Positions 702 through 5,579 of a DNA stretch of 22,602 bases are shown here, one piece after another. The notes under the pieces are model-generated. The model saw only the letters and a program-made list of their open reading frames with translations, had not been told where the DNA came from and did no database searches. The DNA is from a virus: IMG/VR virus record IMGVR_UViG_3300027733_000218, positions 1 to 22,602 of that record, one strand, 5' to 3'. Each line of letters opens with the position of its first letter. Positions within the stretch are counted from its first letter, which is position 1. The position numbers and the translations under genes are program-made.

Positions 702-1313
702 TTAAATAAATAATAAATCTTGCGTTGCAACAATTCCACCAGAATCGTATTGATTTGTTTTTCCTTTTGGGTATGGCAATATTTCATAATTTAATTTGCG
801 TTGCAACAATTTTTTGTCTGTTTTTGTGCCGTGAAAATAAATATAACGATGTTTAGCACTTCTAAATTGCCTAATTAATGGGTCTGTAGCGTGTCTACTG
901 TGTTTTCCATCGCCAGCACTCATGTCTGTGCGTTCTTTGGTTGTGCCAGTAAATAAAAAGTTTGTGGCTTGATATACATAACCAATATGTCCTTGCGCTG
1001 TGTCCGCATAAGAAACAATAATTTTTGGCTTTGGCAACATTCTTATAGAATTTCCAACAAGAAAACTAGATTGATTTTTTGTGTTATCAAGCAAACAAAG
1101 TCTATTTAATTCCAATACAAATTCTTTATATTCTTTACCACAAATTCCTTCGCAAAGACTATTAGAAGCTGGAATACCATAAGTAACAACACCAACAAGT
1201 TTTTTTTCTTCGTACAATCCAAAAGCATAACTAATGCTAGGCAATCTTTTTGCATAATGTTTTTGCATTATCCAAGGTACAGCTTCTTCAGATTTAATAG
1301 GAATAACTATCAC
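702..1313 (-). CDS. Mom-like DNA (adenine) modification enzyme, GNAT-type fold
   Basis: The 203-residue protein matches the pattern of the phage Mu Mom family, which converts adenine in phage DNA to a carbamoylmethyl-type derivative and protects it from host restriction. Visible features: HYAKRLPS near residue 19, the GNAT-like strand LVGVVTYGIP (39-48), ELNRL (69-72), and the SYADTAQGHIGYVYQATNF block (101-119) with S101, D104, H109 and Y114. It starts with GTG at 1313, overlapping the preceding stop as GTGA. Mu mom is tightly controlled; here the gene simply sits inside an operon with a weak GTG start, which may hold expression down. The family assignment is from motif recognition. The exact modified base is not shown by the sequence. 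Confidence 0.75.
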   Translation of the reverse strand: MIVIPIKSEEAVPWIMQKHYAKRLPSISYAFGLYEEKKLVGVVTYGIPASNSLCEGICGKEYKEFVLELNRLCLLDNTKNQSSFLVGNSIRMLPKPKIIVSYADTAQGHIGYVYQATNFLFTGTTKERTDMSAGDGKHSRHATDPLIRQFRSAKHRYIYFHGTKTDKKLLQRKLNYEILPYPKGKTNQYDSGGIVATQDLLFI

Positions 1314-2608: not shown

Positions 2609-2622
2609 TTAAATCCCCTTTA
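2606..2622 (-). repeat. 17-base leader repeat, copy 1 (RBS and start of exported-protein gene)
   Basis: Read on the minus strand this is TAAAGGGGATTTAAATG. It holds the ribosome site and start codon of the exported-protein gene and is identical to the plus-strand sequence at 3282-3298. Confidence 0.7.
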
Positions 2623-2688
2623 GTTAAACAACAACCATAGGTTATAAAGATTAGGTTTTAAAGTCTATTAGTGTTTATCCTTAGTTGT

Positions 2689-2712
2689 AAAAAAACCACT
2701 TCCAAGAGGTTT
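2689..2712 (-). terminator. Weak intrinsic terminator, end of candidate RNA
   Basis: On the minus strand AAACC (2712-2708) pairs with GGTTT (2697-2693) around a mismatch and a short CT/AG stem. It runs straight into seven Ts (complement of the A run 2689-2695), three of which take part in the stem. The stem is weak, so termination may be partial. Confidence 0.4.
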
Positions 2713-2915
2713 AAGCGAACCTAGCCTACCTAGGTTGCCTTCAAAGTTCTTCCATTGAGGAATCGCTCACCCATCAGTCTTGCGAGGCACAGGCACTAAT
2801 TTCGCCACCTGTATTGCGCTGTTTCAGCCTCTTACCCTACTAGTAACGCTATAACCTTATGCCGCTACGATGTCGTTAGAGCCGCCAGCACAAGGGATAC
2901 TGAGTTTACTCTCTT
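2689..2915 (-). ncRNA. Candidate structured non-coding RNA downstream of the regulator gene
   Basis: There is no gene between the regulator (ends 2916) and the exported protein (starts 2608). The interval holds a GC-rich island: 59 of 120 bases at 2761-2880 are G or C, against a clearly AT-rich surround. On the minus strand it has several short stems (ACAGG/CCTGT, TTCC/GGAA) and a perfect 7-bp hairpin at 2718-2736 (AACCTAG, loop gtagg, CTAGGTT), followed by a T-rich terminator-like hairpin. A minus-strand RNA ending near 2689 fits this. Strand and boundaries are inferred. It matches no RNA family I know. It shares words with the island at 5137-5280. It could instead be a long regulatory leader of the exported-protein gene. 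Confidence 0.4.
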
Positions 2916-3185
2916 TTAATCTTCTATCTGTATAAAGGCGTTGCTTTTCGGCAACATCTCAGGCCATATAAGCCAAAAGTTGTTTGGAAACAAATCTTTA
3001 CGAGTTACTAATCCGTTTGATTCTTTTTCTATTCTGGCGGCTAAAAACAACAAATGTTGCCTAGGTATGCCGTCTTTACGCCAAGTTGATACATTGGATG
3101 ACGCAACTTTACATAGCCTTGCAACTTTATTAGTGCCACCCATAAGGTCAATAATTGCCGATTCGGATATTTTTAATTTTTCCAT
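2916..3185 (-). CDS. Cro/YdaS-like helix-turn-helix regulator
   Basis: An 89-residue DNA-binding protein starting MEKLKISES at 3185. Its helix-turn-helix is typical of Cro/YdaS-type phage regulators: IDLMGGTNKVARLCKVASS, then NVSTWRKDGIP as recognition helix and cap. The C-terminal RKDLFPNNFWLIWPEM is the usual Cro-family ending. The frame continues upstream to 3254, but that part is cysteine-rich nonsense covering the promoter, so the later ATG is preferred. The gene faces the recombination operon across a 110-base control region, as Cro/CI-type switches do. It probably represses the plus-strand promoter by binding the palindrome at 3261-3276. Whether a second (CI-type) repressor exists cannot be seen here. 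Confidence 0.75.
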   Translation of the reverse strand: MEKLKISESAIIDLMGGTNKVARLCKVASSNVSTWRKDGIPRQHLLFLAARIEKESNGLVTRKDLFPNNFWLIWPEMLPKSNAFIQIED

Positions 3186-4385: not shown

Positions 4386-5132
4386 ATGAGTATGCATTGG
4401 TATTGCGCCATTACAGGCGCACCACGATATACGATGGTCGGCAAGAATGGCAAAGAAAGAAGCGTAACTTTGCGTGATGCCAAAGCAGCGCCAGGTACTT
4501 TAGTTCCGTCTGTGTCCACCATAAATGGACAGCTTTCTAAAGATGGGCTAAATACATGGCTTCAAACAGAGGCCATTAAAGCTGCTGCGGAAAATCCACG
4601 CCAAAAAGATGAAGAAGAAAAAGACTACATTAGTCGTATTCTTGACCTTTCTAAGAAAAAATCCCAAGAAGCAATGACTAGGGGAACTCTTATACATGAC
4701 TTCATAGAGAGCTTCTACAACCAAGAATACCTACCTGAGATGCCTACCTATGTCCGCAAGGTAGATGACGCTATAACGGCTCATTTTGGGGCGCAGCTAT
4801 GGATTCCTGAACAGAGCCTAGTCAATCAAGAAGGCTATGGCGGTAAGTGCGATTTATATTGCAAAGCAAAGCATGACTTCCCTGGGGTAGTAATTGACTT
4901 CAAGACGACAGAAAAATCCCCTGGTGAACTAACACCCTACCTAGAGCATACACTACAGCTTGCAGCGTATAGAGAGGTTTTAGCACCCCAAGCAAGATGC
5001 GCAAATGTCTACATTAATGGCGAAACTGGCGAGGTTGCAATATACGAACATACAGAACAGGCTATTAGGGATGGTTATGAAATGTTCTTAAGTCTTTTGA
5101 AAATATACAAGCTAAAAACTGGGTTAAACTAA
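4386..5132 (+). CDS. PD-(D/E)XK exonuclease, recombination partner of ERF
   Basis: A 248-residue nuclease of the PD-(D/E)XK / RecB-like superfamily. Motifs in order: GTLIHDFIE (G100, H104), a glutamate near 142, GYGGKCDLY with the metal ligand D156, VVIDFKT with D171-x-K173, and QLAAYRE (Q191, Y195). This is the H...D...DxK...QxxxY arrangement of phage exonucleases that resect double-strand ends to give the single strands ERF anneals. The N-terminus (residues 1-50, YCAITGAPRYTMVG...LVPSVSTI) is typical of the phage forms. A good ribosome site (AAAGGGGAAA) precedes the ATG at 4386. It ends the recombination module; a long gene-free stretch follows. Confidence 0.8.
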   Translation: MSMHWYCAITGAPRYTMVGKNGKERSVTLRDAKAAPGTLVPSVSTINGQLSKDGLNTWLQTEAIKAAAENPRQKDEEEKDYISRILDLSKKKSQEAMTRGTLIHDFIESFYNQEYLPEMPTYVRKVDDAITAHFGAQLWIPEQSLVNQEGYGGKCDLYCKAKHDFPGVVIDFKTTEKSPGELTPYLEHTLQLAAYREVLAPQARCANVYINGETGEVAIYEHTEQAIRDGYEMFLSLLKIYKLKTGLN

Positions 5133-5136
5133 ACAA

Positions 5137-5280
5137 TGAGGTGGTAGGTGTGCTTTCCCCTTTGCACAACCATACATTCACGGAGTCCTGCCACCTCACC
5201 CCTATTCAAGGGCGTTAAGCCGCCAGAACAGGATGCAGTAAGTTAGGGTTTTTGCGGCTTTCCACCTAACAGCTAGTAAC
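5137..5280 (+). other. GC-rich folded island with long stem and possible pseudoknot
   Basis: This is the first part of the gene-free stretch 5133-5579. It is GC-rich (72 of 140 bases at 5141-5280) beside strongly AT-rich sequence. TGAGGTGG (5137-5144) pairs with CCACCTCA (5191-5198) and encloses a hairpin GGTGTGC/GCACA(a)CC (5147-5153 with 5164-5171). Next, AAGCCGC (5217-5223) pairs with GCGGCTT (5254-5260). GTTAGG in that loop (5242-5247) can pair with CCTAAC after it (5265-5270), an H-type pseudoknot layout. No T-run follows, so it is not a simple terminator. It may be a 3' UTR element, a non-coding RNA or a replication site. Strand is uncertain; plus is given because the exonuclease transcript would cover it. 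Confidence 0.45.
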
Positions 5281-5494
5281 TGCCAAATGTTGCCCTATAT
5301 ATTTTCTATATACATTAATATGCTTGTCAATGTCCTATTTTTGCATGATTTTTTCTTTAAATTTCATGCACTTACAACAATAAATTTTTTTAGGTGGTTT
5401 TTGTTTCTCATAGTTTACAAATTGTTGTTTTTTTGTCTAATTAAGGGTAAACACCTATTAAAAACACTTACAAATAAGAATAAATTCTGTTCAT
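5281..5494. other. AT-rich gene-free stretch, possible origin or unwinding region
   Basis: Runs of T and A dominate this stretch, and I accept no gene in it. It has an inverted repeat TGCATGA (5342-5348) / TCATGCA (5364-5370) around a T-rich loop, and CACTTACAA occurs twice (5370-5378 and 5465-5473). Such AT-rich DNA beside a folded GC-rich block, next to replication and recombination genes, would suit a phage replication origin. That is inference only. No clear promoter was found, although one for the gene at 5580 is expected hereabouts. Confidence 0.3.
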
Positions 5495-5561
5495 AGCAGG
5501 TCTTGACACTATTCAGCTCTATGGCTCGTTGAGATTTCAGACTAAAAAGACCTGACCTGCT
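5495..5561 (+). promoter_or_regulatory. Leader hairpin with two competing pairings
   Basis: AGCAGGTC (5495-5502) pairs perfectly with GACCTGCT (5554-5561). The overlapping AGGTCTT (5498-5504) pairs equally well with the adjacent AAGACCT (5547-5553). The 3' side thus has two tandem GACCT units competing for one partner. The element ends 18 bases before the ATG at 5580, so it would lie in that gene's leader and could affect its translation or RNA stability. Confidence 0.4.
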
Positions 5562-5579
5562 ACTTTTATTAAAGGGATT

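What the first reader, a model, noticed from the sequence alone, without database searches (positions are those of the whole stretch)
2689..2915. GC-rich, structured gene-free island downstream of the Cro-like gene
In an AT-rich phage, an intergenic stretch of about 200 bases with near-even base composition (59 of 120 G+C at 2761-2880), several minus-strand stems, a perfect 7-bp hairpin and then a T-run suggests a transcribed structured RNA. It could be a regulatory RNA of the lysis/replication decision, comparable in position to other phage small RNAs near cro, but I recognise no family.
Basis: partly seen in the sequence, partly recalled or inferred. Interest (0 to 1): 0.6.

Follow-up and report, generated by a model that had tools for sequence, protein, structure and literature searches.

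The report
Phage copy of Betaproteobacteria-1 structured RNA
The gene-free stretch encodes a catalogued but unexplained structured RNA (Rfam Betaproteobacteria-1) that many phages of Betaproteobacteria carry, and comparing its relatives reveals missed pseudoknots and a short sequence always present in two matching copies, which hints that the RNA may start phage DNA replication.

Summary
Window 2769-2895, minus strand, matches Rfam RF02932 (Betaproteobacteria-1 RNA) over its full length: 84.6 bits against a gathering score of 49.4. The window is an IMG/VR phage contig. About 110 distinct phage and prophage homologues show the following. (1) The RNA continues about 75 nt past the Rfam model, to about 2697. 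(2) Two helices absent from Rfam, P3 and pseudoknot P5, are supported by covariation; a third is weaker. (3) Most AT-rich members have a -10-like box 6-8 nt before the RNA. (4) In nearly all, a variable 6-13-nt purine-rich element occurs twice: in the P6 loop (R1) and just after the last hairpin (R2). The copies change in concert (z 10-12). No third copy or complement was found in the phage DNA examined, which leaves the R2 template DNA as the only phage partner found for R1. ColE1 RNA II, the plasmid replication primer, has the same arrangement. Best guess (0.4): the RNA forms an R-loop at R2 that primes phage replication. Identity is shown; mechanism is inferred.

The parts
2769..2895 (-). 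Betaproteobacteria-1 RNA, part covered by Rfam RF02932 (model 1-120)
   Evidence: cmscan 84.6 bits, gathering score 49.4, E 1.4e-14
2697..2896 (-). whole RNA as inferred here: P1 to R2, 3' end uncertain
   Evidence: conservation of P6, P7 and R2 in about 110 homologues; 5' end inferred from the -10-like box
2903..2908 (-). -10-like box TAAACT; no good -35 in this copy
   Evidence: TANNNT at the same distance from P1 behind several unrelated upstream genes; not detected by the generic consensus scan
2855..2895 (-). P1 hairpin CCUUGUGC/GCAUAAGG
   Evidence: in the Rfam structure
2816..2849 (-). P2: GCGUU (2849-2845) with AGCGC (2820-2816)
   Evidence: covariation z 7.7; in Rfam
2789..2812 (-). 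P3: ACAGG (2812-2808) with CCUGU (2793-2789); not in the Rfam structure
   Evidence: covariation z 7.4, four pair types at the third pair
2784..2831 (-). P5: GAGGC (2831-2827) with GCCUC (2788-2784); pseudoknot with P2, not in the Rfam structure
   Evidence: covariation z 9.1, 30 distinct strand pairs
2773..2800 (-). P4: AUUAGU (2800-2795) with ACUGAU (2778-2773); pseudoknotted with P3 and P5
   Evidence: covariation z 5.3; in Rfam
2841..2867 (-). P1-loop to P2-loop contact UAG (2867-2865) with CUA (2843-2841); weaker call
   Evidence: z 4.5
2737..2768 (-). P6 arm and GAAGG; carries R1 in its loop
   Evidence: conserved outside the Rfam model
2748..2758 (-). R1 UCAAUGGAAGA (core UGGAAG 2754-2749)
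   Evidence: matches R2; R1 and R2 change together across phages
2718..2736 (-).
   Evidence: conserved with compensating changes by eye; sequence
2697..2707 (-). R2 UCUUGGAAGUG (core UGGAAG 2704-2699)
2615..2696 (-). stretch after R2: T7 run, then AT-rich; proposed unwinding and priming zone (inferred)
   Evidence: 70 nt from R2 average 69% AT against 58% for the contigs in AT-rich phages
2916..3182 (-). upstream Cro/CII-like repressor gene, not part of the RNA
   Evidence: phrog_35 transcriptional repressor, E 1.4e-11

Best explanation
This is a phage-borne Betaproteobacteria-1 RNA (RF02932): a compact, multiply pseudoknotted transcript of about 200 nt from the early/lytic region. Proposed mechanism, inferred and by analogy with plasmid ColE1 RNA II: RNA polymerase makes the RNA and the 5' domain folds. 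The purine-rich R1 loop, matching R2 in sense, pairs with the template DNA strand at R2 as that DNA is opened. This fixes a persistent RNA-DNA hybrid (R-loop) in the AT-rich or G-skewed stretch after R2. The RNA is then cut, or left with a 3' end, and primes leading-strand phage DNA synthesis. Shown: family membership, phage context, the extra helices, concerted change of R1 and R2, no other complement found in the phage DNA examined, and biased composition after R2. Inferred: transcription start, R-loop, primer function.
For: Family: 84.6 bits. Phage context: RF02932 above cut-off in many IMG/VR contigs, unannotated after the partition-helicase-primase genes of Acidovorax phage AP1, and after a helicase and a primase-like gene in 16-17 further loci. 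In AT-rich phages it is often followed within two genes by a relative of the window's 1916-2287 product (20 loci), which matches phrog_270 replication initiation protein. R1 = R2: score 5.43 against 2.38 shuffled, z 10.4, 23 representatives; reverse-complement control null. In a scan of the whole RNA only the P6 loop matches R2 (z 12.1, elsewhere below 2.7). Concerted change among close relatives, 6.1 of 7 positions against 4.5 shuffled, p 2e-4. R1/R2 copies recur in members found by other routes. No third copy or complement in phage contigs (rank 0.53 and 0.49, chance 0.5) nor in the RNA or its flanks (z between -1.2 and 1.9). R1 and R2 are 72-74% purine. In GC-rich phages the 70 nt from R2 have GC skew 0.38 against 0.01 in 44 control gaps (P 1.6e-7), purine 62% against 52% (2e-6), AT 52% against 45% (0.002). 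ColE1 and three of five related plasmids read here show the same layout: GGGGGG upstream (in ColE1 within GAAC-GGGGGG-GUUC) and again before GGAGCCTAT, 228-247 bp apart. The rG-stretch/dC-template interaction is essential in ColE1 (PMC4412123); T4 oriF uses a promoter plus an A+T-rich unwinding element (PMC3016281).
Against: No replication or RNA data. GC skew does not change across the RNA in GC-rich phages (0.04 on each side, P 0.97). Several loci (L259, L270, L289, L296, L298) show a terminator-like T-run rather than a -10 box just before the RNA. RNAs of types II and III at the same locus lack an R1/R2 pair, so a shared origin role for the site is not shown. In some members, including the window, the strict R1/R2 identity is only 6 nt, and in L221, L230 and L236 none was evident. 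Replication genes are nearby in many but not all loci. Phages with their own helicase and primase need not use an RNA primer.
Confidence: 0.4

Rival explanations
1. A trans-acting regulatory or decoy RNA: R1 and R2 are two copies of one recognition site for a phage or host protein, or two seeds for one host RNA, and the folded domain is a stable scaffold.
For: Two identical purine-rich sites in one RNA are typical of protein-binding RNAs (own knowledge). The RNA is compact and, in most AT-rich members, has its own -10-like box. A host target cannot be tested here.
Against: R changes quickly and in concert among near-identical phages, which is hard to match with a coevolving protein. No complement in the phage DNA examined. 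Different phages of one clade would need different host targets.
Confidence: 0.3
2. A cis-acting leader of the early operon, for example a put- or nut-like antitermination element or an attenuator, that controls the genes behind it.
For: Downstream genes lie mostly on the same strand, commonly within about 200 nt. The site after cro resembles nutR. Terminator-like stems sit just upstream in some loci. No conserved terminator ends the RNA.
Against: Known put and nut elements are far smaller (own knowledge). The model gives no reason for R1 to match R2. Downstream genes differ widely between loci.
Confidence: 0.2
3. A guide-type RNA of a mobile or recombination system in which R1 recognises the DNA site R2, as the donor loop of IS110 bridge RNAs does.
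For: R1 matches the flanking DNA R2.
Against: No recombinase or transposase family was seen to recur among the immediate neighbours.
Confidence: 0.05

Closest known systems
Rfam RF02932, Betaproteobacteria-1 RNA
   Same: Full-length match well above the gathering score; same P1, P2 and P4
   Different: The Rfam model stops before P6, R1, P7 and R2 and lacks P3 and P5; no function is given in the records seen here. I could not read the source paper, so which of these features its authors noted is unknown
ColE1-type RNA II (plasmid replication primer)
   Same: Structured transcript; a short G/purine sequence upstream (in a hairpin in ColE1) repeated near the 3' priming site
   Different: No homology is claimed; in ColE1 the repeat is a fixed G6, here it varies between phages; no RNA I or Rop counterpart was sought; priming untested here
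Phage T4 oriF/oriG R-loop origins
   Same: Promoter followed by an AT-rich unwinding element in a phage
   Different: T4 minimal origins are about 100 bp, and their R-loops are reported not to depend on specific sequences
GOLLD and ROOL ornate RNAs
   Same: Complex noncoding RNAs
   Different: Far larger; no Rfam match to them in the loci scanned

Membership tests
RF02932 Betaproteobacteria-1 RNA | score above the gathering threshold over the full model | tested here: met
   84.6 bits against 49.4, model 1-120 of 120
RF02932 Betaproteobacteria-1 RNA | consensus helices P1, P2 and P4 and conserved GGUGGCGAA and UGAAA segments | tested here: met
   alignment; covariation of P2 and P4
ColE1 RNA II-like primer | short loop sequence identical to a site near the 3' end | tested here: met
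   ColE1 compared
ColE1 RNA II-like primer | sequence homology to RNA II | not tested
   no direct alignment was made; Rfam reported only RF02932 in the window
ColE1 RNA II-like primer | persistent RNA-DNA hybrid and DNA synthesis from it | not testable with these tools
   needs R-loop and origin mapping
Replication origin in general | GC-skew shift at the site | tested here: not met
   no GC-skew difference across the RNA in GC-rich phages, P 0.97; in AT-rich phages a shift exists but gene direction also changes there
put/nut antitermination element | termination-resistant transcription downstream | not testable with these tools
   needs in vitro transcription
tRNA or tmRNA | ARAGORN match | tested here: not met
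   none (one unrelated tRNA-Met in L226)

The most novel reading that the evidence does not exclude
Betaproteobacteria-1 RNA is the replication primer of a widespread group of phages, with a loop that pairs with the DNA at the RNA's own 3' end. The loop and the DNA site diverge together, so each phage has a private R-loop origin.
Probability: 0.35. Interest if true: 0.85.

Novelty: new member of a known kind. Interest (0 to 1): 0.58.

Why it matters
It gives an orphan RNA family a clear home (phages and, probably, prophages of Betaproteobacteria), a fuller structure and a sharp, testable feature: two short sites that must match. If the R-loop reading is right, it would be a structured-RNA replication origin in phages, beyond ColE1-type plasmids and T4. 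The finding that sister phages keep different structured-looking RNAs at one site also points to at least two candidate families that Rfam did not match.

Tried and rejected
Folding energy as evidence: not significant on either strand. Terminator as a defining feature: the T-run is not conserved. tRNA or tmRNA: none. Rfam relatives for the RNAs at the same locus in other phages: none at E up to 0.5 in 12 loci. A target for R elsewhere in phage DNA: exact words and gapless duplex scoring at chance; a first run without masking the RNA itself was discarded. An internal or flanking complement of R2: none. R1/R2-like repeats in the type II and III RNAs: none significant. The first choice of representatives for the R test was too strict (7 kept, p 0.026) and was redone with anchored segments. 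GC-skew switch at the RNA: absent in GC-rich phages. blastn of the window region against named phages: no match. The Weinberg 2017 paper, which I recall as the likely source of the family, was not held; full-text searches for the family name gave nothing relevant.

Full report
WHAT WAS CHECKED. Folding energy does not separate it from shuffled sequence on either strand, so the case rests on homology.

IDENTITY. Rfam reports one match in the whole window: RF02932, Betaproteobacteria-1 RNA, 2769-2895 on the minus strand, 84.6 bits, gathering score 49.4, E 1.4e-14, full length. The window is an IMG/VR virus record. The upstream gene on the same strand is a phrog_35 repressor; downstream on the same strand lie a small protein of unknown function and a product that matches phrog_270 replication initiation protein.

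DISTRIBUTION. RF02932 is above cut-off in 15 of 50, 10 of 30, 20 of 48 and 24 of 24 IMG/VR records tested (these were picked by a core pattern or by the Cro-like gene, so they are not a rate). A pattern scan of one genome for each of 84,980 species gave 25 loci; those that look genuine lie in Variovorax, Paraburkholderia, Caballeronia, Xenophilus, Achromobacter, Thauera and Ottowia, with one MAG contig labelled Gammaproteobacteria. I judged eight matches to be chance by their lack of the surrounding structure and removed them. In an even draw, 3 of 250 genomes of the order of a Paraburkholderia carry it above cut-off, one of them the chosen centre. Among named phages, Acidovorax phage AP1 carries it, unannotated, just after partition, helicase and primase genes, and a spring-water siphovirus carries a divergent copy near a primase-like gene.

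STRUCTURE. Anchored strand comparison with shuffled partners supports Rfam's P2 (z 7.7) and P4 (5.3) and two helices that Rfam lacks: P3 (7.4) and the pseudoknot P5 (9.1); a P1-loop/P2-loop contact is weaker (4.5). These z-scores use distinct strand pairs but do not correct for shared descent.

START OF THE RNA. In most AT-rich members TAGAAT, TAAACT, TAAGAT, TATAGT or TACACT ends 6-8 nt before P1, behind several unrelated upstream genes. The window has TAAACT at 2908-2903. Some members instead have a terminator-like stem and T-run just upstream, so a private promoter is not general.

THE VARIABLE REPEAT. R1, in the P6 loop, and R2, just after P7, carry the same short sequence within each RNA but differ between phages, for example CCAGGCGGATAAA twice in L296 and CCAGTTGGATA twice in L298. 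With 23 representatives the same-RNA score is 5.43 against 2.38 when R2 is dealt out at random (sd 0.29), while the reverse-complement control is null. A scan along the whole RNA finds this only at the P6 loop (z 12.1). Among close relatives of the window the two copies change together. Members found by the Rfam model or by blastn show it too. In the window the shared core is UGGAAG, 2754-2749 and 2704-2699; a 6-nt match in this one RNA would not stand alone.

WHAT COULD R1 MATCH? No third copy or complement beyond chance was found in the phage contigs held, many of them partial, nor in the rest of the RNA or within 400 nt upstream and 600 nt downstream of it. The phage partner left for R1 is the template DNA at R2. 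R1 and R2 are purine-rich (72-74%). In GC-rich phages the 70 nt from R2 onward are strongly G-skewed, purine-rich and AT-richer than control gaps; in AT-rich phages they are AT-rich, 69% against 58%, which many intergenic regions are as well.

MECHANISM PROPOSED. This is the layout of ColE1 RNA II. In ColE1, and in three of five related plasmids read here, GGGGGG occurs upstream and again just before GGAGCCTAT, 228-247 bp apart; in ColE1 the first lies between GAAC and GUUC. A fourth keeps a shortened second tract (L587) and in L586 the motif was not found. The rG/dC interaction is essential for the persistent hybrid in ColE1 (PMC4412123); that the loop tract pairs with the distant template tract is from my own knowledge of Masukata and Tomizawa 1990. 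T4 origins show that phages use R-loops with a promoter and an A+T-rich element (PMC3016281). I therefore propose an R-loop primer RNA at 0.4. Against it: no skew change across the site in GC-rich phages, no direct data, and RNAs of other types at the same site without the repeat.

THE SAME SITE IN SISTER PHAGES. Of 48 contigs with a relative of the Cro-like gene, 20 have RF02932. Many of the other 28 hold a different conserved sequence after the gene, often with a similar -10-like box: type II, about 265 nt, and type III, about 200 nt. Each core pattern has at least 120 matching stretches in IMG/VR, a few of them in what looks like coding sequence; 12 loci of these kinds have no Rfam match at E up to 0.5. 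No structure model was built for them. P7-like GGUAGG/GGAUGGG segments occur in all three types by eye only.

NOVELTY. The RNA is a new phage member of a catalogued family of unexplained function. The added helices, the concerted repeat and the exchange at one locus are, as far as I could check, not described, but the paper I take to be the source was not available.

Noticed in passing
L145, L148-L160, L162, L164, L173 and others, just after the Cro-like gene: Type II candidate RNA, about 265 nt, replaces RF02932 at the same site; no Rfam match in the loci scanned; core pattern TTAAATGGSNACNNCACAAGA has 120 or more stretches in IMG/VR.
   Followed up: partly
L161, L166, L167, and many of L440-L559: Type III candidate RNA with AGCRAGGGTCGACACCT core, about 200 nt, often behind a terminator-like stem; no Rfam match in the loci scanned.
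   Followed up: partly
upstream of the RNA in L289, L296, L338, L341, L513 and others: A stem (as in GGGTTGCTTTGAG ... CTTAGAGCAACC) overlapping AACC-TTAA-GGGGTTTTT looks like an attenuator in front of all three RNA types.
   Followed up: no
window 5130-5290 (+): Gene-poor stretch with GAGGTGGTAGG ... CCTGCCACCTC stem; ACGGAGTCCTGCCACCTC recurs in 12 fetched phage loci; no Rfam match.
   Followed up: partly
window 5500-5570 (+): GACACTATTCAGCTCTATGG inside a long AGCAGGTCTT ... AAGACCTG stem, recurs in 9 fetched phage loci; possible further structured RNA.
   Followed up: partly
RF02932 homologues, GCG[A/G]GU after P4 and GU[A/G]AAGG before P7: A with A and G with G seem to go together at these two positions (e.g. 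L219, L276, L301, L310 against most others), as in a non-canonical purine pair; seen by eye.
   Followed up: no
window 702-1313 (-): Mom-like DNA modification protein (phrog_1384, E 4e-58).
   Followed up: no
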